DNA from: Coptis chinensis | Taxonomy: Eukaryota; Streptophyta; Magnoliopsida; Ranunculales; Ranunculaceae | Length of the DNA stretch: 64,000 nt | Assembly (NCBI GenBank): GCA_015680905.1 | Contig: CM027378.1 | Location: 77,529,501-77,593,500 of the forward strand | Reading direction: 5' to 3' | In this document: positions 11,178-59,300 of the stretch, piece by piece | Layout of the letters: each line of letters opens with the position of its first letter | Position numbering within the stretch: position 1 is the first letter of the stretch | Notes under the pieces: generated by a model | Told to the model about the DNA's origin: nothing | Database searches by the model: none | Seen by the model: only the letters and a program-made list of their open reading frames with translations | Translations under genes and position numbers: made by a program

Positions 11178-12744
11178 GTTATCTTATAACACTAACATCC
11201 TCTCACCGACTTACAAGAATCACTCATCCACAATAGAATTACGATTACCACTTATATTAAACATAATCCAGTATTACTAAACAACACCTTGTGAACACAG
11301 GCACATCTGCAAGGGTGGAGCCAATGGTGTGCAAGGGTCCTCAGCTGCACACTCTAAAATTTTGGCAATAATATAGTTAGTAAAGTGAGAACTTTTAGTT
11401 GAAGGTTTGGTTATAAGTACATGATACTCCTGGGCAATGTTACCAGACCTGGCCCAGACGTCCTCTTTAATAAATAACTTGTAATCAAGGAGTTAAATTT
11501 TGAAATGAATTGTTATTTTGAAGTTTAGCTTTAATTGTTTCAACTTTGGAGGCCCGGTTCTCCTCCAAGTGAAATACTTGAGGTCGTGGGTTAATAAATC
11601 AACCCACATTGTATATGTATGCAATCTTCGAGGTTGTATCAGATACTTTCTCCACTTAAACAACATATAGAAAATTGATCGCTAGTGACCTAATGCTTTT
11701 TTGCGTTTTTTATTATGTTTCAAATTGAAAGCATTTGAGCTATCATTCCAATTTGAATGAGTCCAGTTACATCTTTATCCTTAGATATATATATTATAGT
11801 TATATTCTCTTGGCTCTATTTTTCAAAGCTTCATAGAGTCTCCAACTTTTTGTAAACACTAATACTAATTACGAAAAAATAGAAATTCCAAATCCTTAGA
11901 TATATATTATAGTTATACCCTCACCAATCTATATTTTTAGAGCACTCACAGAGATTTTATTTTTTTCTAAATCCCATCTAGAGTTTCACAGAGTCTCCAA
12001 CTTTTCTTAAACAATATAGCTAATTACGGAAAAAAATAAAAAATAAAATAAAATAAAAAATAACTAAATTACAAAAAACAATATTTTCAACCAAAAACGA
12101 TTTTCTTAAAACCTTTACGCCACAATGAATAGCTTCCACACTAATCTCAGATGAAGTTTAACATAACAAAGTTTCTTTCTAGAAAATGATAATGAAACTA
12201 TGAAAGAACAAAGGAAAAAATGAATTGAGTTGCTTGAACATTTACTTTATGCATTTGTTAACCACACATGTGACTGGAAAAAAAAGGAAAAAAAGTAAAC
12301 TAATCATAAAATAAAATAGTGTACACCAAAAACAAATAAAATTGTATTGTATGCACTATATATATGGGACTAACAAATAAAGTTGGATCAATTTGAGGTG
12401 TCATCCACTCTGGGATTTAGACATTTAGTCATAATTAATGATTTCAATAACCACATGTCACAATAATTATGACATATTCTAATTAAATTTATGAATTTTA
12501 TAATTCCCAATTTTAGCAGAGTAACGAGATTCAGTTAAAATGGACGTTGGCTTAAATAGATTATATAACTATTGATTTAGTTAAAGTGGACGTTGGGTTT
12601 AAATAAATTATATACCAAACCAAACCAAAACAAATTATATATGGAAAATTAAATTATACAAAAAATAACATCACAAAATATATATTAGCAAATTTAAAAA
12701 AAAAACAATAATAACAAATATTTTAAAATATATATATATATATA
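11178..12744. other. no gene; AT-rich with one local tandem duplication
   Basis: A block of about 120 bp is present twice (about 11778-11880 and 11894-12035). Each copy contains CCTTAGATATATAT, AGAGTCTCCAACTTTT and CTAATTACG. A GTGGAGCCAATGGTG motif near 11326 resembles a common plant interspersed repeat, but I cannot classify it. Nothing coding is seen. Confidence 0.5.
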
Positions 12745-13455
12745 TAATACTGCATGAAACTAACGTCAAAGAACAATTAGTGGGAAACATAAAACTAGAT
12801 ACAAATGCATCGAACTAACCTCAAATAATATTTAACGGAAAATTAGAAATTGGACGCACATGCAAGCATTAAACTAATCTTAAAAATTAATTAATAGACA
12901 ATCAGAATATTGATACAACTGCATTAAACTAACCTCAAAGAGTAATTAATGGGAAATCAAAACTTGGATGCAAATACATTGAACTAACACCAAAAAATAA
13001 TTATCGGAAAATCGGGAACTGGATGCAAATACATTAAACTAACCATCAAAGATTAAATTAACGGGAAATCGGAAATTGGATGCAACTATAATGAACTAAC
13101 CTAAAAAAAATAACTATAAATTGGAAATAGGATGCAAATGCGTGAAACTAATATTTAAAAATAATTAATGGGAAATCGGAAACCAGATTCAACTACACTA
13201 AACTAATTTCAAAAAATAAATTGGATGCAAATGCATTGAACTAACCTCAAGAAATAATTAACAGAAAATTAGAAACTGGATGCAAATTTATTGAACTAAC
13301 CTCAAACAATAATTAACGGGAAATCAGAAACTAGATGCAAATGCAACCTCATCGAATAATAAATGAGAAATCGGAAACTGGATGCAAATGCATTGAACTG
13401 AGCTTGAAGAATAATTAGCAGAAAATTGGAAATTGGATGCAAATGCATTAAACTA
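12745..13455 (+). repeat. 56-bp satellite array, left block (about 12 copies)
   Basis: A diverged tandem array with monomer approximately GGATGCAAATGCATTGAACT + AACCTCAAAGAATAATTAAC + GGGAAATCGGAAACT. It ends at TAAACTA (13449-13455), where the LINE-2 5' end begins. The same monomer in inverted orientation fills 22010-23391. Confidence 0.88.
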
Positions 13456-13639
13456 TTAGGGGTATTTTCGTAACTTTACTCAAAGTTATGGAAAAATAGA
13501 AAATAACAAGTGAGAATGAGAGCGGGAATCCTAGAACAGCAAGTGGGGGACAGAGGATGATGAGGACTCGAAGTGGGTAGAAGCAGAGTTTGAGAGGCTA
13601 TATGGGGAAGGGTCGCTAGAAAGACTGATTCAAAAAAGA

Positions 13640-15220
13640 ATGATAAGGAATCACAATGATCTACTAGTCCAACGAGAGGATGAAGAAGATGTCGACCTGA
13701 CTACTGACACGACACATGAGGGAATAACCACTGGAACACGAGGTATAAACACTGGAACTGGTGCAATAATCCAAGGAAGCATGGCAATGCAAAACCTAAA
13801 AGTCAGATCCGAGATTTTAGGATCTGGAGAAAAGAGTGATACAGGCACTGAAACACCAAAGATCATAGATATGGAAACAGAGCAGCATGAAGTAACTCGA
13901 ATCTTACGAATAGAGGTAGAGAAGAAAACCACAACAGATGTGAACAAAACACAAGATGATACCATAAAAACCAAGCAAGTTGGTATGGCTGAGTCAGAGA
14001 TGATCAGTACCGAAAGTGGAATTGTGGAACATGTAAATGGTGATGTGAAAATGAAAAGCATGTGGGCAGAAGTGATAGGAAAGAGGTCTGCTGGACGAGA
14101 AGAACTGAGTTATATACCACCAACAATGGTTGACGGCAAACCAGTTATCCATGTGCAGAGCTCAAACTTCACAGCTTTCAACAAAAAAAGCGAGAATCTG
14201 GTAGTTGGTTCATTTGTTGGAAAAAGAATGAACTATGCTTATGTTAAGGAGATAGTGAGTAGGACATGGAGGATAAAGAATTTCAAAATGAAGCCGTATG
14301 CAGACACAATGTTTACTTTTTTGTTTGAGAAGGAGGATGATCGCAAGGCAGTTTTGGACATTGGATCCTTCCATATTGCGAGTAAGCTGTTTGTGATTAG
14401 ACCTTGGAAGCTATTAAGTAGGCGAAATGAGAGAACTAAAACTATACCTATATGGGTAGTAGTAAAAGGGTTACCTATGGAGATGTGGAATAAGGCTGGA
14501 TTTAGCCAGTGGGAAGTCTTTGTCGAGAGTACAATGTTTACAGATCGACTCACGGAGAATATGGCTAGAACGTCTTATGCAAGAATGTGCATAGAGATCG
14601 ATGCGAAATGCACTTACCCTGCAAACATTCCAGTGGTTTTAGACTAAAAAAGAGCATATAAAATAGAGTTCGAATACAACTGGAAACCTCCATGTTGCTT
14701 GGCATGTCAAGTATTTGGGCACACTAACCAGAGTTGTCCAAAAAAGCCGAAAACAGATGTGGCAATGAAAACAGTATGGCTCAAGAAGAACACTAAGAAT
14801 GATGGAGAGGAGGAACAGAATAAGGCAAGGAGCAAGCCAACTGAGGCTTCAGTACAAGAAGTACAAGAAGTTCAGGAGATACAAGATGATGAAGGGTGGC
14901 AGACTCTGAGTAAGAAACACACGTGCAAACAAAGACAAGTTTTGAATGGAGAAACAAGTAACAGCGCAGCTGAACCAAGGAAAGAGGGTAATGGGAATGG
15001 CAAGGAGAGTACAGAGAAAGGGGGACAGGGAGAAAGAAAGAAGGAAGAAGAGCTCAGGGAGGATGAAACATGTCTAGAAAACAGTCATGAATCGCATCAG
15101 GGGAATAACCGAGAGAAATCCACAAATAATGAGAAGGTTGCAGCTGCAGCGAGAGGAAGGTTCAGTACTGTTACTAGGAAGAGTAGCAAGCAAGTTATAC
15201 ACCCCCATTTGTTTAAATGA
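13640..15220 (+). pseudogene. LINE-2 ORF1 (DUF4283 plus intact CCHC knuckle)
   Basis: A 335-residue frame holds the acidic N-terminus and DUF4283 (AEVIGKRSAGREE, then FTFLFEKEDDRKAVLDIGSF, KLFVIRPW and IPIWVVVKGLPMEMW). A stop at 14645 (the only break I see) precedes a second in-frame stretch. That stretch holds the zinc knuckle CLACQVFGHTNQSC, with all C-x2-C-x4-H-x4-C ligands present, followed by a Lys/Glu-rich tail ending at 15220. It would be an RNA chaperone of the LINE RNP. It is well preserved apart from that stop. Confidence 0.82.
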
Positions 15221-16452
15221 TAAATATAGGCTGTTGGAATATGAGGGGACTGAATAAGAAGTTTAAGTAGGTTGATGTAAGGGAACTGATAAGGAAAAAT
15301 GATATTAATATGATGGGTTTAGTAGAGACGAGAGTCAAGGAGAAGAAGAAGGATTATGTGTTGAGGAATTACTGCCAAGGATGGAATATAGAACAAAACT
15401 ATGAATTCAATGAGCTAGGAAGGGTTTGGGTATGCTGGAACCCAAACATGTGTAATGCTACAGTCATGCATAAAGAGGAACAAAGCATAACTATGGAAGT
15501 TACTATAGTCACTAATAAGAACTTCATAGTTACCTTTGTGTATGCACGCACTAATATGATAGCGAGAAGAACCTTATGGAGGAGCATAGTGGACTTGCCA
15601 GCTAACATACACAAGCCCTGGATAATTCTAGGGGATTTTAACTCAGTGTTGGATCCATTAGAAAAAGTGGGAGGGAATGAATTGAGACACCCAAATGTTA
15701 CTGAGTTTGTAAACTGTGTAACCATAGCGGGACTGACTGACATGAGATTCAAAGGTAATATATTCACTTGGAATAACAGACAAGAGAATAGAATAAGCAG
15801 CAAGTTGGATATAGTTATGTGCAACTCAGAGTGGATAGGGGAACATTGTGATATGGAAGCAGAATTTCCGAACCCAGGAGTCACATCTGATCATAGCTCG
15901 ATGGTGGTATACTCTACTACACAGAAAAATCAAAAGAAACGGTCTTTTAGATTCTTCAATTTCTGGGTAGGAGAAGGTAAATTCATGGAAGTGGTGCAAG
16001 AAGCATGGGCAAGTCAGGTGGTTGGGAATCCGATGTACAGGGTCATGAAGAGGCTGAAGCTTACAAAGGTAGCACTCATTGAATGGAATAAAAGCACAAT
16101 AGGGAATGTAACAAAGAGAGCAGAAGAAACAAGGAAAGAAATGGAGAGGATTCAAACGGAGCTACAAAAGGAACCACTCAGTAGAGAGCTCATCAAAAAG
16201 GAAAGAATGATTGTGAGGCAGCATGTACATGCATCAAAGTCTGAGGAGGTATGTTATAGGCAGAAATCGAGAGACCAATCAGTTTGTTTGGGGGATAGCA
16301 ATACTAAGTATTTCTTTAAATCAGTGCAAGCTAGAAGAAATACCAATAAGATAACATGTCTGCTGAATGGAGATGGGTCTATAATGGAGGATCTGAATGT
16401 GATAGGAGAGAGATGTATTGAGTATTACAATGACCTATTGTCAAAAACATGA
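15220..16452 (+). pseudogene. LINE-2 endonuclease (N-terminus of ORF2)
   Basis: It begins INIGCWNMRGLNKKF with one stop near 15268, then a 380-residue open stretch. The catalytic pattern is intact: GLVETR (Glu), WIILGDFNSVL (Asp/Asn), FTWNNR and TSDHSSM (Asp-His). The frame runs to GERCIEYYNDLLSKT and then changes abruptly to gypsy sequence. The continuation (GLPMKQHISLEQQEKLQGEV, the linker before RT) is on the minus strand from 26392. Confidence 0.85.
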
Positions 16453-16455
16453 TAT

Positions 16456-16674
16456 ATGATATGGGTCAAACTTCCCGCGACGAAGCATCATCCAATCCAT
16501 ACACCTTGGTCATTTGCGAAATGGGGCCTTGACATTGTTGGTTTATTTCCGACAGCCCCTGACAGTATTCGTTTCTTGCTCGTCGTAACAAATTATTTTA
16601 CTAAGGGAGTGGACAAAATAGACAAGTTGAACGAAAAACCGGACAAAAAATTTGTTCATCTGTTTCCAGTTTAA
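16456..16674 (+). pseudogene. gypsy integrase core fragment
   Basis: The peptide HHPIHTPWSFAKWGLDIVG plus FLLVVTNYFTKGVD is the start of the rve integrase core. It keeps the first catalytic Asp in GLDIVG. After about 50 residues the homology ends in a divergent tail and a stop. The rest of the core, with the second Asp and Glu, is missing. The zinc-binding domain that should precede it is at 26390-26570 (minus). Confidence 0.8.
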
Positions 16675-16779
16675 TAGTTTCTTTTCCGTTATTATTTTTG
16701 CACTTTTCAAGATTTGGTGCTCAATAAAGTCTTTCTTTCACTTCAATTCTAATGGTATCATTTTGTTTTCATCGCAACA

Positions 16780-17640
16780 TTATTATCGCTACGACAAAAT
16801 CTGACGAAGTTACCACATTTAGCTTCGTCAGTCTAAGTTTGAACGCTTTTACGCTCGCTTAGTTCGTTATTATCGCTACGACAAAATCTGATGAAGTTAC
16901 CACGTTTAGCTTCGTCAGTCTAAGTTTGAATGCTTTTATGCTCGCTTAGTTCGTTACTATCGCTATGACAAAATCTGACGAAGTTACCGCGTTTAGTTTC
17001 GTCAGTCTAAGTTTGAACGCTTTTACGCTCGCTTAGTTTTTTACTATCGCTATGAAAAACCTCGACGGTTACCACGTTTAACCGTCGATCTAAGTTTGAA
17101 CGCTTATCACGGTTAAACAGTTCGTTACTATCGCTATGACAAAATCTGACGAAGTTACCACATTTAGCTTTATCAGTCTAAGTTTGAACGCTTTTACGCT
17201 CGCTTAGTTCGTTACTATCGCTACCAAAAAACCTTACGAAGTTACCACGTTTAGCTTCGTCAGTCTAAGTTTGAACGCTTTTACACTCGCTTAGTTCGTT
17301 ACTATCGCTATGACAAAATCTAACAAAGTTACCACATTTAGCTTCGTCAGTCTAAGTTTGAACGCTTTTACGCTCGCTTAGTTCGTTACTATCGCGACGA
17401 CAAAATCTGACAAAGTTACCACGTTTTTTACGTTCGCTTTATCCGTTACTATCGCTACGACAAAATCTGACGAAGTTACCACGTTTAGCTTCGTCAGTCT
17501 AAGTTTGAACGTTTTTACGCTCGCTTAGTCCGTTACTATCACTAAGACATATCCGACTAAGTCACCGCATTTCGTTTTATCAGTCGAAGTTTGAACGTTT
17601 TTACACTCGCTTAGTCTAATTTTGTCGAGTTAAGTTAGCA
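16780..17640 (+). repeat. 87-bp tandem repeat in the gypsy 3' UTR (about 10 copies)
   Basis: The unit begins TTCGTTACTATCGCTACGAC and contains the inverted pair GACGAAG...CTTCGTC, so each monomer can fold. The spacing measured between the first two copies is exactly 87 bp. One copy is shortened (around 17400-17450) and one carries a compensatory change: CGACGG pairs with CCGTCG near 17067-17092. Confidence 0.9.
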
Positions 17641-17929
17641 TTGGGGGAGTTTTTCTCTACATGGGGGCATCTCATTCTATTTCATTTCAACTACATAAAT
17701 CAAGAACATTGTCAGTTTTCCGCAGATATGTTATCTGTCACAACAACAATATTCAATAGCAAATCCATACTTTATTTTTATTTTTCATCAAAAAAAGTTT
17801 TAGCTCTATGGTATTCCATTCACACAATTACCTAATCAATTGTCTCTGTCAATTGTCTTACGGTCGTTCGATTAAATCTTCATTTTCTTCTTCGAAATCT
17901 GCATTCGCTTCGCTCAGCACTTTTGGTTA

Positions 17930-19170
17930 ACTATCTTCCGCATTCATTATTTTTTCTAAGGCATTGTGCCGCTCTTTCTCAACGAAACTTTCCGTCGGCT
18001 TCATTCTTTTTTCTAAGGCATTGGGTCGATATTTCTGAGAGACTTTTCGTCGATTTTTCTGAGCGAAAATTTTCTCCGACTTCTTTATTTCTTCTATGGC
18101 ATTGCGGCGCGATCACCCTGAGCAAAACCTTTCTTCAACTTCTTTATTTTTTCTAAGGCATTGAAATCTTTCCGCTCAAAAAATTTTGTCAATATCTTTT
18201 GCTTGTAATTCCTCCGTTTCAACCTGCGACAAAAATACAAATCCTTTCATCAGTCTTTCAGACTTAACCAAAGTTTTAAGATAACTAATAAAAAATACTA
18301 ACATACCTGTTTAATGCCGTTAACAATCATTGACTCCGCTTAAAGTATTTTTCGAGTTCATCCACGGTGAATGACACTTTTTCTTTAGCCATTGCTTTTC
18401 GAATAGTCACCCCAACACTCTCTATCATTCTTTCCTTAACAATCCGATTCTTTTATTTTTCTCACTCGCACGCAAGCCCCTTTTTTCTAAGACATTCTGC
18501 CGATCTTTCTACGAGGAATTTTCCGAGCAACGATTTTTGAAAGCTTTCCATTATTTTTTCGAGGGCATTGTGCTGATTGTTCTCCAAGAAATTTTCTGAG
18601 CGAAATTTTTTGACAGTTTTGTTATTTTTTTCTAAGGCATTGAGCCGATTTTTCCGAGCGAGTTGTGAATTTCCGACAGCTTCATTATTTTTTCTAAAGT
18701 ATTGAGCCGATCTTTTTCCAAGTTAAACTTTCCAACAACACCATTATTTTCTCTAAGGCATTGAGCTGATTTTTCTCAATGAAATTTCTTTCTGCTTCTT
18801 TCATTCTTCTACGACATTAATTGACACCTTGTTACGCACAATTTTTCTCCGTCGACTCTTTGTACATATATTTTGCTTGAACTACCGCCGTTTCTCCGTG
18901 CGACAAAAATTCGCATTACATTAACTTTTTGAGTGAAAACTTTCTTCAACTTCTTTATTTTTTCTATGGTATTGTGATCTTTTAGCTTGAAACTTTTCGT
19001 TAATATCTTTTGCTCATAATTTCGCTGTTTCAACCTGCGACGAAAATACAAATATTTTCGTTAGTCTTTCAGACTTAACCAAAATTTGAAGCTAACTGAT
19101 ACAAAAATACTAACATACCTGTTTCATGCTGTCGAAATTTTTTGACACCGCTTTGTCATATTCTCCGAAC
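17930..19170 (+). repeat. diverged 60-72-bp repeats and a ~800-bp long-range duplication
   Basis: TTTTTCTAAGGCATTG recurs at roughly 60-72-bp spacing, first at 17950-18160 and again at 18490-18760. A larger block (TTTCAACCTGCGAC, then TCAGACTTAACCAAA and ACTAACATACCTGTTT) occurs at about 18215-18315 and again at about 19030-19120. I read this as an older, decayed satellite-like region in the same 3' UTR. Confidence 0.7.
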
Positions 19171-21390
19171 TTTTCTCCATTTTTTTCGGCAGCCCAAAAT
19201 AACTCAATAATTGCACATCTTTTTTTTTTTTTTTTTAACGGAATTACACTCCCGTAACTTAATTTGACCATCGCCGCGGCATCGTGTATTTGTTGTTTCT
19301 GTCACCTTCTTTCCACCTCACCGAGTCTACGATCGTCATCGAGTCTTCTTACTATTCTCGATTATCTTTTGCCTGTATAATACGGTCGTTTCTCACCTGC
19401 TTAAAATAATAATAATAATAATAAAATAAAACAAAATAAAAAATCGGATCAGATAGGTGGTTCACTTGACCCAAAAAGGGTGCACCGGGCCAAGCTAAAG
19501 AACATCAGGTACGGTGCCCTTCTTTTACTGGCGCTGCACCGTATCATGTTGGTTAATATTAGTTTTTTGAATAGAGGCGCCATCAGTATCGCCTTCACCA
19601 CGTTTCTTCTATAGCAGCTCATGAGGGAATTCGCTCCAAACACCAACAGTTTTATTTTTTGTCATCTCCACATGATCCATGCAGAGGAATTCCTGAGGAA
19701 ACAATTCAACAGTTCAAAGGCCATGCATAAAATTAAAAAAAAACAAAGAAAATATAGCGCGCCAAAGTTTACTTACCACAATATAATCGGAATCCAAGAT
19801 ATGCTGAAAGGTGGATATTCCGTAGCCATGTCCCTTCTTGATAAGTTCAAATCAAGCCCAAGCAAGTTGTTTAAATCTTGAGCTGGTGGACTGGGTTTCA
19901 ATCTCATCAGTGCTACTAGAGTTGTACTATTTGATCCATATTAGAATCCTGCTCGAGCCTTACAAGCCCAGGATAGGTCGTTTTCGCTATGGGCAAAGAC
20001 GACATGTTGGGGTTTTTTCGCATGCTCGCTGCGGTTCCCTTGAGGAACTTGTGTATACACGCCAGGTATATATATAGCAGCTCTCAAATCTTGCTGTATC
20101 AGGCAAGATGCAAAACGATATTTTGAAGGCGTCCAAGTACCAGGGTGAGCTTTTTGAATTAGCAATTTATTTGGTGAACTCTCTGATCAGCTTTTTACTG
20201 GTGCGATAGTTAAGAAAGGATGAAGAAGATGAGGAGAGGAGTTACTTGAAACCAGAGGACTGTATAAATAAACAAACACAGTACTAACCTTTTCTTCGTC
20301 AACTCGCCAACTTTTTTTTTCTTCGAAACCAACGACGGCACAGTACGAAAACTCGATCACTATCGCAATGGTGTAGTACTTTTGTTAGCAAAGTGGAGTT
20401 TACTTGTGTTTTTTCTCGGTTATTAGTGCTAGCTCATAACTTTTCTCTCTCTAAGATTTGTGCTAGGCCGGGACTGGTTTTATTTTCTCTATACTTGTGT
20501 TCACTGTTTTTGATTAGTTATTATCATGTTCCCTCTGTTTATATATTCTTTCCCGATCTTGCACTGGTCTAGTATTTCAGTCCTTGTATAATTCTATTAG
20601 CCAAACCGACTTAAGGTGGGAGACTCGATGATAAGCATTATCCAATCCGGATATAATTTTGGAGTCCTAGTTTTCTATGGTGTTTTCACGTGCACATCTT
20701 CTAGTTATGTAAGGATACCAGCAAGAATTGCTCTCACATGCAAACATAATTATTAGTTGCATGGATGTATTTTTCAGTTCCTCAATCTGTTTCGTACCAC
20801 CTAATATGTATTAGTATTCTATTCCCTACAATTCTATATGTGCAATTTTTGCACTCCACGTCTATTTTGCTATTCATCAATTTATATTTTTTTATGCCCA
20901 CTTCTCACACTACTCATGTTCATATTTCGGAACAAATTTTTGACTATTGTACATTTTTCAAATTCCAATTATTTCGTTCACAATAATTCGCAAATTTTTC
21001 TCGACAGTTTTCAATGGTCTAATCCTAGTATCGCTATTCCACTGGCACGTGTCGTCGAAATCAACTTTCGTATTGTTACGTAATGCGTTTGGTACAGTTT
21101 TCGACAATCAATTTCTTTTGCAATTTTATTTCTGTGCATCTTTTATTTTTTTTGTGCATTTTCAGCGATCTTTTATTTAACTACGTCATTGCGTCCCGTA
21201 TACGTTAGTTTGACATTATTTCGTTTCCGATAATTCATGATTTTTTTCCGATTGTCTATTTTCTTATCGTTTATGTTCACACGACACTTTGTTATACATT
21301 CCGCTTACTCTTTTCTTATTCCATTTTTTCCTTGTTTTTTCTTCTCTTCTTTGCCATATGAACTTTGTTCGCATGCCAAAGAGGGGGCGA
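19171..21390 (+). other. gypsy 3' non-coding region
   Basis: No coding signature is seen. It includes a short TAA microsatellite at about 19405-19430. The last bases, AAAGAGGGGGCGA (21378-21390), form a polypurine tract that primes plus-strand synthesis directly before the 3' LTR. Confidence 0.7.
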
Positions 21391-21872
21391 TGTTTCGACC
21401 CCCATCTATGTGGCAAACATCCATTGGTATGAGTCTCCACTTTATTCGTTTAATCAACAGGGCTTTAGCCCAATTTGCAATACCATAGATCAATGTACAT
21501 GCCCATTAACTCATGTGTCTAAGGCTGAACCTTAGCCACATGGCTTGCCACTAATGTACGTTAATTTATGTCCAAATTCGTTTCTTATCAAAGAGATAAT
21601 TATCAGTTGAGAATTATATTCTATCACAATTACTCAAGCTATAAGAATACTTGAGTTACAAGGACTCTCTATTCTACCTATATAAATACCAAACTATTTT
21701 TCATAAAGAACTACGTTCTTGAGACTTGATCCCATTGATAATTTGGATACGTAGGCAACCACAAGGTACAGTCTCATCATTCTCCCGATCACCATCATTT
21801 TTCTAATTACTTTTCTACGTTCTTCGTCTCTTTCATCAACACTTAGTGTTTTGATCATATTTGGTCGAAACA
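21391..21872 (+). repeat. gypsy 3' LTR
   Basis: A 482-bp LTR starting TGTTTCGACC and ending GGTCGAAACA, a 10-bp inverted terminal match that includes the canonical TG...CA. It is preceded by a polypurine tract, so it is the 3' LTR. Its partner is the inverted copy at 27661-28240. By eye I count about 15 differences between them, excluding a 98-bp duplication in the partner (about 97% identity). Confidence 0.92.
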
Positions 21873-22009
21873 GTGACGAAGATGATATTGAAGCTACTTA
21901 AATAGCAAGCCATTCACAATCATAATAAAATAATTATAATAAACATTACTTAAAATGCAAAACTATACTTGTCGCTATATTATATTCTCCCTATATATAA
22001 TACAACTAT
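21873..22009. other. spacer between gypsy LTR and satellite
   Basis: AT-rich flank of the gypsy insertion. The five bases after the LTR are GTGAC. The five at the other outer edge, read in element orientation, are GTGGT, so the target duplication matches only in the first three positions. Confidence 0.5.
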
Positions 22010-23391
22010 GTTCCGAGGTTAGTTCAATGCATTTGTATCAAGTTTTCGATTTTACGTTAAGTATTCTTTGAAGTTAGTTCAATGTAGTTGGATCTAGTTT
22101 TTTATTTCTCATTAATTATTCTTTGAGGTTAATTCAATGTAGTTGTATCAAGTTTCTGATTTTCCGTTAATTATTCTTTGAGGTTAGTTCAGTGCAGTTG
22201 CACCAAGTTTATGATTTCCTATTAGTTATTCATTAAGGTTAATTCAGTGCAGTTCCATATAGTTTTCAATGTTTCATTAATTACTCTTTGAAATTAGTTA
22301 ATTGCATTTGCATCAATGTTCCAATTTCCCGTTAATTGCTCTTTGAGGTTAGTTTAATACATCTGCATCCAGTTTCCGATTTTCCGTTAATTATTTTTCG
22401 AAGTTAGTTCGCATCTAGCTTCCAATTTCCGGTTATTTATGCTTTGAGGGTAGTTCGATGTAGTTACATCCGGTTTCCGATTTTCAGTTAACTATTCTTT
22501 GAGGTTATTTTAATGCATTTGCATCTAGTTTCTGATTTTCCATTAAATATTCATCAAAGATATTGCATCCAATTTCTGATTTCCCAGCCTGTTAGTTAAT
22601 ATATTATTTTAGTTTAATGTAGTTGCATCCAGTTTTCGATTTTCTGTTAATTATTCTTTGAGGTTAGTTCAATACAGTTGCATCCAATTTTCTATTTCCC
22701 GTTAATTGTTTTTTTAGGTTAGTTTAATACATTTGCAGCAAGTTTTCGATTTCCCGTTAATTATTTTTTGAGGTTTGTTCAATGTAGTTGCATCAAATTT
22801 ATGATTTCCCGTTAATTATTTATTGAGGTTAGTTCAGTGCATTTGCATCCATTTTTTTATGTTTCTATATTCGTTAATTAGTCTTTAGATTAGTTTATTG
22901 CATTTGCATCCAGTTTCTGATTTCTCATTAATAACTCTTTGATGTTAGTTCAATACATCTGCATCTAGTTTATGATTTTTGATTATTTATGCTTTGAGGT
23001 TAGTTCGATGCAATTTCATTCGGTTTTTGATTTCCCGTTAACTATTCTTTGAGATTATTTATATTTCAATGCATTTGCATCCAGTTTCTGATTTCCCGTC
23101 AATTATTCTATGAGGTTAGTTCAATGCAGTTGCATTTGGTTTTTAATTTTCTCTTAATTATATTTTGAGGTTAGTTCAATGCATTATTTGCATCCAGTTT
23201 CTGATTCACCGTTAATTATTATTTGAGGTTTATTTGTAGCATTTTTGCATACCGTTTCCGATTTCCCGTTAAATAATTTTCAAGGATTTTCATCCAATTT
23301 CTAATTTCCCATTAGTTATTTTCTTACGTTAGTTTAATGCAGTTGCATCCAGTTTCCGATTTTTAGTTAATTACTTTTTGAGTTTAGTTTA
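22010..23391 (-). repeat. 56-bp satellite array, right block (about 24 copies)
   Basis: Reverse complement of the array at 12745-13455, with monomer GAGGTTAGTTCAATGCATTT + GCATCCAGTTTCCGATTTCC + CGTTAATTATTCTTT. Its right end is TAGTTTA (23385-23391), the complement of the TAAACTA at 13449-13455. Together they give a 7-bp LINE-2 target duplication once the inversion is undone. Confidence 0.88.
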
Positions 23392-23477
23392 TTTCTTTTC
23401 TTTTTTTTTTGGTATCAGGAAGCAGGGTTTTTTTAGAGGTCCCTTACCCCTATATTATTATAACTGAAATCATAAGC

Positions 23478-24848
23478 TTAGTTTGCATTACATTCTCTCA
23501 CATACTCTTTCCCTATAGCATCCTCATATACTATTTTTTTTACATCCTCTGCGAAAGAACTAGGGATTAAAATAATATATCTAACAGCTGGAATATTAGC
23601 AGCTATTGCATCTGCTAGCCTATTACATTCCCTGAATACATGTATTATAGAAAAATGTTCCAGTGTCGCTATCATTTTCCTTATGTTTCCTATCATATGT
23701 GTTGCTTCCCACGGGTATTCATTGTTGTTAAAAAAAGATACCACATTTTGTGAGTCAGTCTGCGCTCTCACTCTGCATAATCCTTTCTCCCTCGCTAGTT
23801 TTATGCCTTGTTGTACTCCTTGAAGCTCTATCAATGCTATGTTTTTGTACTCTGATCTGCCATGTGCAGCACTTATCACCTCACCTTGCTCATTTCTAAT
23901 CACTGCATCCCATCCCCCTTCACTGTTCGTCAACGTGCCATCTGAGTTCAGGTTATAAGTTCCAGTCATTGCTCTTTCCCACTTGCATCGAATGTATCTG
24001 ATCCTTTTCTCTGTTACTTCCATATTCCACAAGTCCGCAAACCTTTCTCTCTCTGGTCCTCCCATCATCTGCAAGTTCAGCGATATCAACTTCGTTCTCA
24101 CATCCTGCACAACCAGTTTAACAACTTGAGCTGCTATTAGGTACACATTATTAAAGATTCTATTATTCCTCTCTCTCCACACCCAATAGTGATACCCTAT
24201 AAACGATAGCCTCAGCGCATCTTGTTTGAGTCCTCTTCCTTCTGTAGCTTTAACAACCCATTTTACCTCCTCCCTCCATGTACCTGATCGTCTTCTTGCA
24301 TAGCCACCTTGTGTTAGCAGCTCACCCCATACATATTGCGCATATACACAATAAAAAAACAGGTGACATTCAGTCTCCATCTCTCGCCAGCACAGCACAC
24401 ATGTATCGTCTGTCACTGTTTTCCATTCCTTTAGCTTTTGTCTCGTCTTCATTCTTTCCTTCAATGCCATCCATGTTATAAAAGAATGTTTTGGAATACG
24501 GTGTGTAAACCACACAATACTATGCCATCCCACCGGAACTTTTGTGTCTCGTACACTTTCATAAGTTTCCTTCATCTTGTAGTCTCCTGACAAAGTTGGT
24601 GTCCACACTATCTTGTCATGTCCCTCTACCACTTTAACTTCTTCTAGCATCTCTGTTATGATACCTGGTAGATGGATATAACTCGGTACCCTCCACTCCC
24701 CATTCTCTATCAGTTCTGACACCTTTGCGTTCATGCTGCAAGTTGAGCTGTAGAGAAGCTCCTGTGGAAAATATTCTCTAAGGATTCCAGCTGGATGCCA
24801 TGGGTCCATCCAGAAGCTTGTATCTTGTCCTTCTCCGATTAAGTGCAT
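23478..24848 (-). pseudogene. LINE-2 zf-RVT and RNase H domains
   Basis: An uninterrupted 456-residue frame. The N-terminal third has WMDPWHPAG and the zf-RVT region (FTHRIPKHSFITWMALKERM, CVLCWREMETECHLFFYC). From about residue 290 comes an RNase H with NLNSDGT (Asp), IALIELQGVQ (Glu), AQTDSQNV (Asp) and RLADAIA (Asp), all four catalytic acids present. It is the best-preserved RNase H in the window. Upstream, RT is separated by stops around 24850-25230. Confidence 0.85.
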
Positions 24849-25229
24849 AGAAAAGAATGATGCATCCTTCCGAAGCTTTAGAATGTTTCGCCAAACCTAG
24901 GAACAGTCACTTGGAATCTTGATGTGCCAGAAGTTTCTCCCTCTGATAAGATTTTTCTTCACCCATTTTACCCACAAACTGTCTTTGTCACTTACAATAT
25001 GCCAGAGATGCTTCATTGTAGCTGCTTGATTCACCCTAGCCAAGTCTCTGATTGCCAGTCCTCCTTCATCATATGGATAGCATATCTATTCCCATCCAAT
25101 AAGTGAGTGAGATAATGAACAGTCCGTACCATTCCATAAGAAGTTCCTGCATATTCTGTTAACTTCCTCAATAGTTTTGAGTGGTGTAATGAATGATGAG
25201 AACCGATATACACTCAAACTGTTCAGAAC

Positions 25230-26392
25230 TTACTTGATAAGTTGTACCCTTCCTGCATAGGATAAGAAGCATCCTTTCCAACTCTGTACTCTATTAGTAA
25301 GCCTCGTAATAAGTGGTGTGCAATCAGTTGATTTCAACCTTGTTGTAATGAGCGGCAACCCAAGATACTTGACTGGAAGCTTACCTTCTTGGAACTGGAT
25401 AATGTCCTGCACTTCTATTATGATATTAGGGTCCATACCAGCATAGTACATTTTACTCTTTTGCATATTCACCTCGAGCCCTGTGCATCTCTTGAATAGT
25501 GATAAGTTGTCTTTCAAACATGAAGCTGTATTGACATCCCCATACATAAAAGCAATCAAATTATCCGCAAATGATAGATGTGTTATAATAGGATCCTTGC
25601 ATTTATAATGGAGTTTAAACTGTCCACTGCTCACAGAATGGATCATAAGTTCAATAAACAAATCCATGACTAGCACAAACAGGTAAGGTGACATGGGGTC
25701 ACCCTGCCTTATAACTCTCTTCCCTCTGAAGTAGCCATATGGAGCCCCATTGATCATAATCGAGTAATTTGGTGTCTGAATGCATATTTGAACCCATTGT
25801 ATAAACCTTTCTGGCACCCCTATCATTTGGAGCGCAAACACCACCGCTTCCCATCTGACTGAGTCATATGCCTTCCTCAGATCAATTTTTGCAGCACATC
25901 TAGGGGGTGCTACATCTCTATGATAGTTGTGTAGTAGCTCATGAAGAATGTTATCTTGTATACTTCTGCCTGGGATGAAAGCAGATTGATTTGATGCCAC
26001 CACATTGGTTATCATATACTTCATCCTTGTAGTTAGTACTTTAGTGATACATTTGTACATAACTCCAAAGCATGCAATAGGCCTATAATCTCCTAGAGAA
26101 ATAGGGCTTGTTATCTTTGGAACTAAAGTGATGCATGTGTCATTGACCTCACCTGGCATCATACCTGATCTGAAAAAATTCTGCACTGCTTTAACAAAGT
26201 CGTCCCCAATGATCCTCCATGTGCTTTTGAAAAACAACGATGTGAATCCATCCTTCCCTGGGGTTTATCACTATCAATCTTAGACAATGCCTCTATTATC
26301 TCATCTCTAGAAACTTCCCCTTGTAACTTCTCTTGTTGTTCGAGGCTGATATGCTGCTTCATCGGTAACCCATCAAACATCAAGAAATACAT
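25230..26392 (-). pseudogene. LINE-2 reverse transcriptase with altered catalytic motif
   Basis: RT motifs in order: ITLVPKITSP, YRPIACFGVMYKCITKVLTT, SAFIPGRSIQDNIL, KIDLRKAYDSVRWE, RQGDPMSPYLFVLVMD, then HLSFADNLIAF. The invariant second Asp of the (F/Y)-x-D-D motif is Asn here (FADN), which should abolish polymerisation. One frameshift at about 26240 separates the linker (EQQEKLQGEVSRDEIIEAL) from RT. A stop at 25230 precedes the thumb. Confidence 0.85.
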
Positions 26393-26570
26393 TTCCTCTA
26401 TCTGTTAAAGGCACACACTTCTCGGACAAATGCTTAACATCCTTTGGCATGTATGGCCACCAATACCTTTGGGTCATTACTATGTGAGCGAAACTTCGCC
26501 CCCGGAAGTGTTGTTCACATAATCCTGAATGAATTTCTTCGAGGCCTAGTAAATCGTTCGTTCTGCCCAA
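26390..26570 (-). pseudogene. gypsy integrase zinc-binding (H2C2) domain
   Basis: The sequence EEIHSGLCEQHFRGRSFAHI followed by YWWPYMPKDVKHLSEKC contains His, His and the first zinc Cys. The second Cys would lie just past the break. After KCVP the sequence turns into LINE-2 linker. Confidence 0.8.
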
Positions 26571-26929
26571 ACAACAAAGGATAGGATTGAGACTTGTGTC
26601 ACTGCGATAGAGTTTTTGGTCATCAGGAATTCTGGAGCATCATCAGCTGCATGATCCTCATCGGTAGATACCGAGACATTATCAGTGCTAAGCTCGTTGG
26701 AATCATCTGACATCATAAGTGGTTAATCCAGTGTTGTCGTGACAGTGACGATTTGATTTTCCACGGATAAGTATACGATAGAATCAAGATGCCTTACATC
26801 ATAACGCTGATATGACACAATACTGATAGATGCAAGATTTCATGCAATTCATTGAATTAAGTCAAGATAAATGACCGGTCTATCATCGTGAGCCGCATAT
26901 TATCATTCAAAGTGGCTAGCGACTAACTT

Positions 26930-27510
26930 AGAATAATTAATCGTAACTTAGTCGCCCCAACTGAAGAGCTGTGCGTATACCGCAAATGACAGTGTCATAC
27001 TCGGCCATATTATTTGAAGCATTAAATCCCAAACGTAAAGACCTTCTCAATTATGTCATTATTTAGCTTCAAGATGACAAAACCAATACTGGAGCCAGAC
27101 TTATTATACGAACTATCGGTGTAAATCTAGCAATCAGCTGATATATCGGATAAGTATTTCAAGTCATCGCCCCCGGGAGGTAATGACAATTAGGGATCGA
27201 CGTGTTCCTCATCAAGTAATGCGTTCGACATAGGAATACCATCAATAAGAAAATCAGCTACTAGCGAAACCAAAGTTTGTCTTTTTTTAACTGTATGAGT
27301 GGCAGAGACAATGTTGTAAACGCTAAGGTAACTTGTCCATTCTGTGACTCGATCCGTAGATATTGCGAAAAAACTTACACAGCGGATATTCGATCAGTAG
27401 AAACTTCGACTATTCCTTCCTTGAAAGAACCTGAAGATGTCGAACAGCATGAAACAAGGCCAATGCAATTTTTTCAATGCAAGAATGCCTCCATTCAGCT
27501 GATATAAGAG
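26930..27510 (-). pseudogene. gypsy dual RNase H region
   Basis: At 27500-27340 the RT-linked RNase H remnant reads EKIALALFHAV and EWTSYLSVYNIV across frames. The linker RQTLVSLVADFLIDG follows. A second RNase H then has IYTDSSYNKSGSSIGFVI (catalytic Asp) and NASNNMAEYDTVI (catalytic Glu). Frames shift at least three times. The domain order matches Tat-type pol. Confidence 0.75.
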
Positions 27511-27639
27511 TCTTACTAACAAATAATATGAGACGACAACATCATGTTCGCGATGATCGTCAGCAATTGCATCGGGACCTTGAGCTCTTCTAGTATTCGT
27601 CATAACTTTTGTAGAACGTGATCGATGGTGTTGAATAAG

Positions 27640-27660
27640 AACCGCAGACGGCGCCAATTA
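27640..27660 (-). other. gypsy primer-binding site
   Basis: Immediately after the LTR end (read on the minus strand) comes TAATTGGCGCCGTCTGCGG. The TGGCGCCGTCTG core is the tRNA-complementary primer site I know from Tat/Ogre-type elements (tRNA-Arg class). It fixes 27661-28240 as the 5' LTR. Confidence 0.7.
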
Positions 27661-28240
27661 TGTTTCGACCAAATATGATCAAAATACTAAGTGTTGATGA
27701 AATAGACAAAGAACGTAGAAAAGTAATTAGAAAAATGATGGTGATCGGGAGAATGATGAGACTGTACCTTGTGGTTGCCTACGTACCCAAATTATCAATG
27801 GGATCAAGTCTCAAGAACGTAGTTCTTTATGAAAAATAGTTTGGTATTTATATAGGTAGAATAGAGAGTCCTTGTAACTCAAGTATTCATTATCAATGGG
27901 ATCAAGTCTCAAGAACGTAGTTCTTTATGAAAAATAGTTTGGTATTTATATAGGTAGAATAGAGAATCCTTGTAACTCAAGTATTCTTATAACTTGAGTA
28001 ATTGTGATAGAATATAATTCTCAACTGATAATTATCTCTTTGATAAGAAACGAATTTGGACATAAATTAATGTACATTAGTGGCAAGCCATGTGGCTAAG
28101 GTTCAGCCTTAGACACATGAGTTAATGGGCATGTACATTGATCTATGGTATTGCAAATCGGGCTTTAGCCCTATTGATTAAACGAATAAAGTAGAGACTC
28201 CTACCAATGGACGTTTGCCACGTAGGTGGGGGTCGAAACA
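27661..28240 (-). repeat. gypsy 5' LTR with internal 98-bp duplication
   Basis: Inverted relative to 21391-21872, with the same TGTTTCGACC and GGTCGAAACA ends. It is 580 bp long because a 98-bp block beginning ATTATCAATGGGATC is present twice in tandem (starts at 27791 and 27889). The two copies differ at one base that I can see. Confidence 0.92.
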
Positions 28241-28477
28241 ACCACATTGGATATTCTCACAAAATTTCAATCAAACTTATATTATTAAACACAACAACAA
28301 AAATAAATCGATGGGTTTTACCAAAGTTTGGTGCTTTCTTTTGATAGAGAGTGGTGTAAGAAATTTGAACAAGTGATTAATATAATTTACATATCTTATA
28401 GCTATGAATAGTTGCTAATATTTTTTAGAATAATTTAATATAACGACACCCATTCGTAGGACGGGTTCGAAAGCTAG
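28241..28477 (+). mobile_element. 3' terminus of another Helitron (possible)
   Basis: The segment ends ACGGGTTCGAAAGCTAG followed by T (CTAG at 28474-28477). Plant Helitrons end in CTRR after a short GC-rich hairpin and insert before T. The CCC...GGG stem just upstream (about 28449-28465) is weak. The 5' end of such an element is not visible because the gypsy LTR begins at 28240. Confidence 0.45.
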
Positions 28478-28479
28478 TA

Positions 28480-29279: not shown

Positions 29280-30060
29280 AAAGTGACACAAAAGCCTTAT
29301 TAAATGTGTCACTTTTGTTTAATAAAAGTGAGACTTAAGAATAGCTTCTTGTGTCACTTTTAAGAAAGAGTGTCACAGTGCTTGTCTCAAAAGTGACACT
29401 AGTTGTATCCGTTTAGGACCAGAGTGGGACATAATTTCGTTAAAAGTGACACATTAAGTATACCAGTTGTGTCACTTTTAGACCAAAGTGAGACACATAA
29501 AATGCGTCAAAAGACACATTAAGTATACTAGTTATGTCACTTTTTTAGACTAGAGTGAGACATAAGTACGTCAAAAGTGACACATTAAATATACTAGTTG
29601 TGTCACTTTTGGACCAGAGTGAGACATAAGTACGTCAAAAGTGACACATTAAGTATACTAGTTGTGTCACTTTTGGACAAGAGTGAGACATAAGTACGTC
29701 AAAAGTGACACATTAAGTATATTAGTTGTGTCACTTTTGGACCAGAGTGAGACATAAGTACGTCAAAAGTGACACATTAAGTATACTAGTTGTGTCACTT
29801 TTGAACCAGAGTGAGACATAAGTACGTCAAAAGTGACATATTAAGTATACTAGTTGTGTCACTTTTGGACCAGAGTGAGACATAAGTACGTCAAAAGTGA
29901 CACATTAAGTATACTAGTTGTGTCACTTTTGGACCGAGATGAGACATAAATGCGTCAAAAGTGACACATTAAGTGTACTAGTTGTGTCACTTTTGGACCA
30001 GAGTGAGACACAAGTACGTCAAAAGTGACACAAAAGCCCCTTACTTCTTGTATCACTTTT
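29280..30060. repeat. 64-bp subterminal repeats of CACTA-1 (about 10 copies)
   Basis: The unit is AAAAGTGACACATTAAGTAT + ACTAGTTGTGTCACTTTTGG + ACCAGAGTGAGACATAAGTA + CGTC, with an exact 64-bp period between 29637, 29701 and 29765. Each unit holds a GTGACAC and its inverse GTGTCAC about 18 bp apart, so every monomer can form a hairpin. A shorter, less regular set with the same motif is at 38230-38425. Confidence 0.9.
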
Positions 30061-56328: not shown

Positions 56329-56398
56329 TAAGTTCTAATTGTATTATTGTTTTGCTAAATTAATTTATATTATTAACATGTGTGCATTTCATTTTTAG

Positions 56399-59300
56399 GA
56401 AAATTCTCTATGCCATGGAATTTCAGAGGACCTTCGAGTGTCTGCTCTCACTGTGGTGCTATACTTTGGTATGAGGAAAGGAACACAAAATATAGGAGAC
56501 CCAAGAATCCAAAGTTCACCATCTGTTGCCAACAAGGGAAGGTAAAATTGCCATTACTAAAAGAACCTCTGAGTTTTCTAAAGCAGCTCATGGACTACAA
56601 TGGGGGACCTAGATCAAGAAAATTCAGAGAAAATATACGGTCATACAATACGATGTTTGCTATGACATATATGGGCGGAAAAATAGACAAGGATATAAAC
56701 AAAAAAGGTCGTGGACCCTATGTTTTCAAATTGACCGGGCAAAATCATCATAAGATAGGTTCTTTACTGCCAATGCTAGGCCAGAAGCCAAGATTTGCTC
56801 AGTTATATATACATGACACAGAAAACGAAGTTCAAAACCGAGTGGATTTTTTGAAAAGAAAAGAAAAAGAAGATCCGAAAAACATAGATAAAGAAATTGT
56901 CGACAGATTGATAAAAATGTTCAATGTTGAGAATAATCTAATAAAATCTTTCAAAACAGCAAGAGAAAGATTCCGAGAGTCTGATTTGATCCACGTGCGC
57001 TTGAGAATCATTGGAACGCAAAACAAGGATGCAAGGTAGTACAACATACTAGAGGCAGCAGAAGTCGCTGGATTAATTGTTAGAGACGGAAATGAAAATA
57101 ATAACGATAGAGATGTAATTGTCGAGAAAAGATCATAAGGCTTAAAAAGGATGAATGAGTTACAACCAACCTTTATGGCTATGCAGTATCCTATTCTTTT
57201 TCCATTTGGAGAAGACGGTTTCCATTTGAACATTTTAAAAAATAATGTACGTGGAGGTAAGCTGACAAAACGCAATACAGTAAGCATTAGAGAATTCTAT
57301 GCTTACAGGCTTCAACATAGAAAAAATGAAGGACATACACTGATGAGAGGTGGACGTCTTTTGAGCCAGTTAGTAGTTGATGCAGAAACAAGCGTAGTGG
57401 AGCTCCGTCTATGTTGGATACGTGATAACCAGAAAAAGATCATATCAGAATTATACCAAGGTCTCCAAGATGCAGTTGTTCTCGGAGAAACAACACCAGC
57501 TTCAGTTGGAAAAAAATTAGTTCTACCTTCTTCATTTACAGGAGGTCCAAGATATATGGTTCAAAGCTATCAAGACGCAATTGCTATTTGTAGATATGCA
57601 GGATCACCAAATCTTTTCATCACATTTACCTGTAATTCTAAATGGCTAGAGATAGAAGAATTCACCACCTTAGTGGGGCTAAAACCATAAGATGACCCAT
57701 TAATTGTAGCTCAGGCATTTAAGATCAAGCTAGATCAACTCATGGACGATTTATGTCGAGGTCAACACTTCGGAAAGGTTATGGTAGTTATTTTCTAGAT
57801 GTCTCTCCTTCTGTCTCACTGACGAATCTAATTTATTCAATTTTAGTTGAACTTCCTAATTAACTATATATTAATTAATATTAACATCAGCCAAAGTGGC
57901 TAATTATTTATTTTCATTTGGACTTTGAACTTCAAACTTTAGCCTCTAAGTCAATAGAGACTTTTGTTTCTCTGTCCTTATTACCTTTTTGTGTATTTAA
58001 TCTAACTGATTTCCTCTTTGCAGTTGTTTACACAATTGAATTTCAAAAAAGGGGACTACCACATGCTCATATATTGTTGTTCCTGCACGACAAACTGAAA
58101 ACTCTATCAGACATCCAAACAATCATCTCTGCCGAGCTGCCTGATGAAGTCGATGATCCATTAGGATTTCAAGCCGTAGTCCAATACATGATACATGGTC
58201 CATGTGGCACAGAAAATGAAAAATCTCCTTGCATGGATGAAAATAAATGCACTAGGAAATTCCCAAAGAGATTTTTTGCAAATGAAAACAACCATAGATG
58301 AAAAAGGATTTGCTGCTTACATGAGAAGAAATGATTCCAAATTCGCTATAACAAAGAAAGGGAAAAAAGTTGATAACAGTTGGGTTGCTCTGTACAACAG
58401 AGATTTGATCGTCAAATACCAAGCACACATAAATGTCGAATTCTGCAACCAAGGAAAGTCTGTTAAGTATTTGTTCAAATATGTGCACAAGGGTGGTGGT
58501 AAGAGCAACATTTGTTATTGAGGAGAACATCCAGAATGGCGAATCAAATGGAGAACAGGTTATACGTGAAGTTGACGAGGTCAAACAATATCAAGACTGT
58601 CGTTATCTATCAGCACATGAGGCAGCTTGGAGAATTCTCGATTTTCACATTCAATATCGAAACCCAGCAGTCGAACGTCTTTCATTCCACTTGGAAAACC
58701 AACAACCTATCATATACCAAGATAGTGATTATATACCTGATGTGGCAAATAGGAGTGGAGTGCACAACACTCAATTCACCGAGTGGATGAAGACAAATGT
58801 AGAGAACGAAGATGCAAGGCAATTGACATATGCTGAATTTCCTACAAAATGGGTCTAGGATGCAAACAGTGACAAGAAATGGACAAGAAGGAAATCAGGA
58901 AGAACTATAGGCAGGATATACTATACCCCACCGACAACAGGTGAACAGTTTTATCTTCGTCTACTTCTTAACACGATGAAGGGTCCAACGAACTTTAAAG
59001 AGATAAGAACAGTAAATGGAAAAGTGCATCCGACCTACAAGTCAGCGTGCCTCGCACTAGGACTGTTGGAAGACGATGGTGAATGGCATGAAGCAATCAA
59101 AGAAGCAGCAATTTCAACATTACCAAAAACATTGAGGCAAATGTTCGTCACTCTTTTGATGTACTGTGAGATAACCGATCCTTTGGAACTATGGAACATA
59201 AATTGGAAATTACTTTCTAAGGACATTCTTTTTAACGAAAGAAACAGACTCATGAACGATGAACTGACACTCACTAATGAGGAAATTCAAAATTGTGCAC

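What the first reader, a model, noticed from the sequence alone, without database searches (positions are those of the whole stretch)
16453..26392. A single ~9.9-kb inversion simultaneously breaks a LINE, a gypsy element and a satellite array
Four things are visible. (a) A LINE stops at 16452 in the linker before RT, and the rest of a LINE starts at the matching linker point at 26392 on the other strand. (b) A gypsy integrase core starts at about 16456 (plus), and the integrase zinc finger that should precede it ends at about 26393-26415 (minus). (c) The same 56-bp satellite is in opposite orientation at 12745-13455 and 22010-23391. (d) The gypsy LTRs are inverted, although one has a polypurine tract before it and the other a primer-binding site after it. 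Flipping 16453-26392 repairs all four: a ~6.0-kb LINE in a continuous array, then a gypsy element with two direct LTRs. I see no inverted repeat at the two junctions themselves, so a simple assembly flip is less likely.
Basis: partly seen in the sequence, partly recalled or inferred. Interest (0 to 1): 0.87.

Follow-up and report, generated by a model that had tools for sequence, protein, structure and literature searches.

The report
Small inversion cutting two mobile elements
About ten thousand letters of a plant-like chromosome appear to have been cut out, flipped and rejoined, splitting two old jumping genes that other copies in the same genome still show unbroken; it is a cleanly readable but ordinary kind of break-and-repair scar.

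Summary
The inversion is present in the sequence and can be placed to within a base or two. The window lies on a 114-Mb contig of a 935.6-Mb genome. Among the 39 other rows scored for each junction, none spans it. In 24 of 24 fetched gypsy loci (22 distinct) the two gypsy sides are adjacent with a 2-bp overlap. In the two closest LINE sisters the LINE sides lie 9-10 bp apart, bases the window has lost. An independent test agrees: DNA outside the two inverted LTRs (from 21873, and from 28241) is contiguous in 7 of 7 longer copies of a host repeat without the gypsy insertion. The two broken sites share no homology. Best explanation: two double-strand breaks about 10 kb apart, rejoined by non-homologous end joining after the gypsy insertion; LTR divergence (15 of 482 sites) sets the upper age. 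Assembly error is unlikely but not excluded without reads. Opposed satellites alone are weak evidence. An ordinary kind of event, unusually well resolved.

The parts
16438..26407 (.). inverted segment (left end ambiguous by 1-2 bp)
16436..16440 (.). junction 1: LINE left half joined to gypsy 3' part; 1-bp overlap (T at 16438)
   Evidence: window CCTATTGTC; intact LINE CCTATACAG; intact gypsy CCTTGTC or CCTTATC in most printed copies
26405..26410 (.). junction 2: LINE right half joined to gypsy 5' part, one extra or changed base at 26407; the gypsy TT (26408-26409 on the minus strand) is also present at junction 1
13456..16438 (+). LINE, 5' part (DUF4283 frame; endonuclease frame)
   Evidence: starts TTAGGGG as in sister L050
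23402..26406 (-). LINE, 3' part (RVT_1, zf-RVT, RVT_3)
26408..27660 (-). gypsy-like element, 5' internal part (PBS side by eye; RNase H-like trace E 0.035; integrase zinc-finger-like region E 3.6e-4)
16438..21390 (+). gypsy-like element, 3' internal part, with 87-bp tandem array 16780-17616 and a purine tract before the LTR (by eye)
21391..21872 (+). gypsy 3' LTR (482 bp)
27661..28240 (-). gypsy 5' LTR (580 bp, with 98-bp tandem duplication at 27791-27990)
21873..22010 (+). host-repeat flank A, outside the 3' LTR
28241..28478 (-). host-repeat flank B, outside the 5' LTR; on the + strand it ends in hairpin-like sequence and CTAGT
22010..23391 (-). 55-bp tandem array 1 of the host repeat
12745..13455 (+). 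55-bp tandem array 2 of the host repeat
11787..12745 (.). other unique end of the host repeat
   Evidence: 11787-12790 matched as one block in L062, L063, L065 (92-94%), in two blocks in L066 (92-94%), from 12284 only in L061 (86%); no match in L064, only fragments at lower identity in L067

Best explanation
The segment 16438/16439-26407 was inverted in place by two double-strand breaks, one inside a LINE and one inside a gypsy-like LTR element about 10 kb away, whose ends were rejoined in the swapped order by non-homologous end joining. Before that, a dispersed, probably Helitron-like repeat with 55-bp tandem arrays had received a LINE in its array and a gypsy-like element in its end region. 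Shown: the four half-elements, their adjacency in intact copies, the empty site in other copies of the host repeat, and the junction letters. Inferred: the breaks, the repair pathway, the Helitron label, and that the inverted order is the derived one.
For: Among 39 other scored rows per junction none spans it. Gypsy sides are adjacent with a 2-bp overlap in 24 of 24 fetched loci, 22 distinct. LINE sides are adjacent in both close sisters, and 25 of 40 non-window rows of the left half (65-97% identity) have the right half within 300 bp in intact order. For each LINE half the listed matches at 95% or more are window, C4 and C6. Host-repeat flanks A and B, separated in the window by the inverted LTRs, are contiguous in 7 of 7 longer host-repeat copies and in 9 of 9 loci (L060 over 66 bases of B only). 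The array phase is kept across the LINE, with TAAACTA on both sides when the right side is read on the minus strand. Repair-like marks: 9-10 bp lost from the LINE, 1-2 bp of the gypsy present at both junctions, one extra or changed base. No homology between the intact sites: best local score 9; 469 of 500 shuffles score as high or higher.
Against: No reads, second accession or relative genome was available. The gypsy target-site copies differ (GTGGT and GTGAC, 3 of 5 the same); empty sites read GTGAC (3 of 7), GTGGC (3 of 7) or ATGGC (1 of 7), so one transition on each side would explain it, but that is a patch. The window's host repeat lacks the roughly 0.5-kb spacer seen between the two arrays in the four copies mapped (L061, L062, L063, L067), so an additional array deletion is needed. 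15 of 40 left-half LINE rows had no listed right half. Two of 7 host-repeat regions did not show the far end well (L064, L067).
Confidence: 0.93

Rival explanations
1. Assembly error: the segment was flipped by the assembler and does not exist in the plant.
For: The window as assembled holds inverted LTRs and inverted arrays, which can confuse assemblers; no reads could be checked.
Against: The switch points lie inside the LINE and the gypsy, not in the inverted LTRs or arrays; there is no N in the window; the junctions carry repair-like marks (9-10 bp lost, 1-2 bp doubled, one extra base) that a scaffolding flip would not be expected to produce.
Confidence: 0.05
2. Recombination between inverted repeats at the two sites (NAHR).
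For: Ectopic recombination between repeats such as TEs is one of the mechanisms named for inversions (PMC7093584, passages).
Against: No similarity above shuffles between the intact sites within 100 bp on either side; the LTRs and arrays are inverted to each other only in the present order.
Confidence: 0.01
3. Replication-based template switching (FoSTeS/MMBIR) instead of two breaks.
For: One or two shared bases and one extra base at the junctions would be allowed.
Against: The event is balanced: about 10 bp lost and 1-2 bp gained, which two breaks and end joining give most simply (inference).
Confidence: 0.06
4. The halves belong to different insertions that happen to lie side by side.
For: The gypsy family is large: 1380 first-look candidates for one piece.
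Against: For each LINE half only three listed places reach 95%, the breaks in LINE and gypsy are complementary to within about 10 bp, and the flanks of the two LTRs form one empty site in other copies.
Confidence: 0.01

Closest known systems
Small inversions of plant genomes formed by breakage and non-homologous end joining
   Same: Two breaks, swapped rejoining, small loss and gain at the junctions, repeat-rich DNA. Breakage with non-homologous end joining is among the mechanisms named in PMC7093584 (passages).
   Different: Found from a single assembly through other copies of the broken elements instead of by comparing accessions.
TE-driven inversions such as Galileo in Drosophila or alternative transposition in maize (PMC2775673, PMC8225341; search listings and abstract starts only)
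   Same: Inversion breakpoints at transposable elements.
   Different: There the element drives the event by ectopic recombination or transposition; here no homology was found and the breaks lie inside the elements. Transposase signatures were not searched for by any tool.
L1 5' inversion by twin priming (recalled)
   Same: A LINE with halves in opposite directions.
   Different: Here the inverted segment also holds part of another element, arrays and host-repeat DNA.

Membership tests
Simple (balanced) chromosomal inversion | Both junctions join the same two sites in swapped order | tested here: met
Simple (balanced) chromosomal inversion | Uninverted order exists at this locus in another haplotype or relative | not testable with these tools
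   no relatives held; in the rows listed, the left flank 10600-11780 matches elsewhere only within its first 341 bases, so no second copy of the locus was seen
Non-homologous end joining product | No long homology at the breaks; small loss, gain or extra bases | tested here: met
NAHR inversion | Inverted repeats at both breakpoints | tested here: not met
   (100 bp on each side of each intact site)
L1-type LINE of plants | DUF4283 frame, endonuclease, RT, zf-RVT, RNase H | tested here: met
   (DUF4283 E 4.8e-20, Exo_endo_phos E 2.6e-6, RVT_1 E 8.3e-35, zf-RVT E 4.7e-19, RVT_3 E 1.8e-17); that this set marks plant L1 is recalled
Ty3/gypsy LTR retrotransposon | Two LTRs, PBS, PPT, 5-bp target-site duplication | tested here: inconclusive
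   LTRs met; PBS and PPT by eye; target-site copies agree at 3 of 5
Ty3/gypsy LTR retrotransposon | gag, protease, RT, RNase H, integrase in Ty3 order | tested here: not met
   only a weak integrase zinc-finger hit and an RNase H-like trace; 1,253 bp between LTR and break leave no room for gag and RT; a non-autonomous derivative at most
Helitron (host repeat) | 3' hairpin and CTRRT end, 5' TC, no target-site duplication | tested here: inconclusive
   end at CTAGT followed by different DNA in the window, L062 and L064; the motif was not found in L063, and two more copies were not reached because the script stopped; 5' end not settled; motif recalled

The most novel reading that the evidence does not exclude
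The inversion turned a direct LTR pair (15 of 482 sites different, 5.8 kb apart in the window) and two tandem arrays into inverted repeats; a read-through transcript could fold into long double-stranded RNA and seed small RNAs against a large gypsy family, as recalled for Mu killer in maize.
Probability: 0.04. Interest if true: 0.6.

Novelty: new member of a known kind. Interest (0 to 1): 0.25.

Why it matters
It shows that a small inversion in repeat DNA can be recognised and placed almost to the base from one assembly, because other copies of the broken elements keep the intact letters. Scanned genome-wide, this would let one measure how often such inversions occur where synteny cannot be used. 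No function of the locus is suggested by what was seen.

Tried and rejected
The satellite orientation as independent proof was dropped: 2 of 7 host-repeat regions (L061, L067) also carry arrays of both directions. A homology-driven event was rejected. Rfam and tRNA scans of the window gave nothing. The integrase-core piece gave no Pfam hit and only two chance-level PDB rows. Five paper searches were used for context; this locus was not seen in their listings, and nothing is claimed about print beyond them.

Full report
Setting. Contigs C1-C9 are 85-125 Mb each, so the assembly is chromosome-scale. The LINE's domain set with DUF4283 suggests a plant (domains; the inference is recalled). The window holds no N.

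Junction 1. A 301-base query over 16300-16600 gave 40 scored rows. Only the window covers all of it; of the 39 others, 38 start at query base 139 (window 16438) and one at 138, all on the gypsy side. Junction 2. A 311-base query over 26250-26560 gave 40 rows: the window covers all, two rows cover 1-157 (LINE side, C4 and C6), and 37 start at 159 (gypsy side). The tool scores only the best candidates (40 of 531 and 40 of 641 first-look candidates), so absence of a spanning copy holds for the scored rows.

Intact gypsy. For the 24 fetched gypsy loci (22 distinct; L005 and L022, and L008 and L013, are the same places), window base 16438 and window base 26408 fall on neighbouring bases in 24 of 24 and on opposite strands, as an inversion requires; this makes a 2-bp overlap. 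They were 7 of the 39 non-window rows and 17 of the 37 gypsy rows. The 16 copies printed read TGCCTT or TGTCTT, then GTC, GTA or ATC and A-rich sequence.

Intact LINE. The two closest sisters, at C4:82.52 Mb and C6:54.31 Mb, match both halves at 95-98%; the C4 sister matches the left half only from 13881 on. In L010, 16438 is base 1491 and 26406 is base 1501, leaving 9 bases that the window lacks; the count becomes 10 if the ambiguous T at 16438 is given to the gypsy. Among the 40 non-window rows of the left half, 25 have the right half within 300 bp in intact order, with gaps of 5 to 127 bp; 15 have none in the capped list, 13 of these at 65-69% identity, one at 74% and one at 84%. The one at 84%, C7:70418853, is the first piece of a locus whose second piece does pair.

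Third line: the host repeat. The DNA just outside the LTR at 21391-21872 (flank A, 21873-22010, then the array) and just outside the LTR at 27661-28240 (flank B, 28241-28478) come from one dispersed repeat. A and B are contiguous in 9 of 9 non-window loci fetched (in L060 over 66 bases of B only), seven of which were re-fetched longer and agree, 7 of 7. The empty site reads ...AAT followed by GTGAC (3 of 7), GTGGC (3 of 7) or ATGGC (1 of 7); the window has GTGGT before one LTR and GTGAC after the other. This looks like a 5-bp target-site duplication with two differences, each side one transition from GTGGC; it fits but is not clean. The far end (11787-12790) lies beyond the array in L062, L063 and L065 as one block, in L066 as two blocks and in L061 from 12284 on; L064 showed no match and L067 only fragments. 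So the left end, the arrays and both LTR flanks of the window are pieces of one kind of repeat, and an inversion is what puts them back in the order of the other copies.

LINE insertion site. The LINE starts at 13456 (TTAGGGG, as in L050) directly after GCATTAAACTA; after its A-rich tail on the other side the minus strand reads TAAACTAAACTC, in the phase of the tandem unit. The window lacks the spacer of about 0.5 kb that lies between arrays 1 and 2 in the four copies mapped, so an array contraction must have happened too; its order relative to the LINE is unknown.

Mechanism. Junction 1 reads CCTATTGTC (LINE CCTAT, gypsy TTGTC, one shared T). Junction 2 on the minus strand reads GCCTT-T-AACAGAT (gypsy, one extra base, LINE). 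Thus 9-10 bp were lost at the LINE break, 1-2 bp are doubled at the gypsy break, and one base was added or changed. A local alignment of the two intact sites (one LINE copy, one gypsy copy, 100 bp on each side) scores 9, against a mean of 10.7 for shuffles; 469 of 500 shuffles reach 9. This is what end joining of two breaks leaves. PMC7093584 (passages) names ectopic recombination, and breakage with non-homologous end joining, among the mechanisms of inversions. PMC7156093 (passages) describes end-joining marks at indel junctions in wheat. [quoted passage not shown]

Age. The two LTRs differ at 15 of 482 sites (11 transitions, 4 transversions) apart from one 98-bp duplication; K2P is 0.032. 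With recalled rates of 1.3e-8 and 7e-9 per site per year this is about 1.2 and 2.3 million years for the insertion. The inversion should be younger, since it broke the element; no lower bound is available.

What is not shown. The inversion was not tested with reads, in other accessions or in relatives. No second copy of the locus was seen: in the rows listed, the left flank 10600-11780 matches elsewhere only within its first 341 bases. The gypsy label rests on LTRs, a weak zinc-finger hit and a recalled integrase motif. The satellite directions alone would not have proved anything.

Noticed in passing
26408-27700: The gypsy-like family looks like a non-autonomous derivative: 31 of 39 non-window places match at least 594 of the 601 bases of 27100-27700 (LTR edge to RNase H-like region) in one piece. 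At four places (C8:59.0, C2:65.3, C4:76.7, C1:29.1 Mb) about 0.57-0.60 kb of other DNA lies at about window 27538; a fifth (C5:14.0 Mb) is split there with overlapping pieces (40 of 1380 candidates scored).
   Followed up: partly
11787-28478: The host repeat with two 55-bp tandem arrays ends, in the window and two of three copies reached, at CTAGT followed by unrelated DNA: it may be a Helitron that spreads a satellite. 1922 first-look candidates for its flank A; tandem-repeat-bearing Helitrons are described in PMC10048060 (passages).
   Followed up: partly
27791-27990: A 98-bp direct duplication inside one LTR only.
   Followed up: no
56377-60994 (+): Open frames that look like an autonomous Helitron's helicase protein (recalled motifs in the translations; not searched).
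   Followed up: no
29398-30032: 64-bp tandem array, about 10 copies, 90% matches.
   Followed up: no
13535-15220 and 23478-26404: The LINE has a stop inside its DUF4283-side frame (14645-14647) and its RT half is broken into several frames, so it seems decayed apart from the inversion.
   Followed up: no
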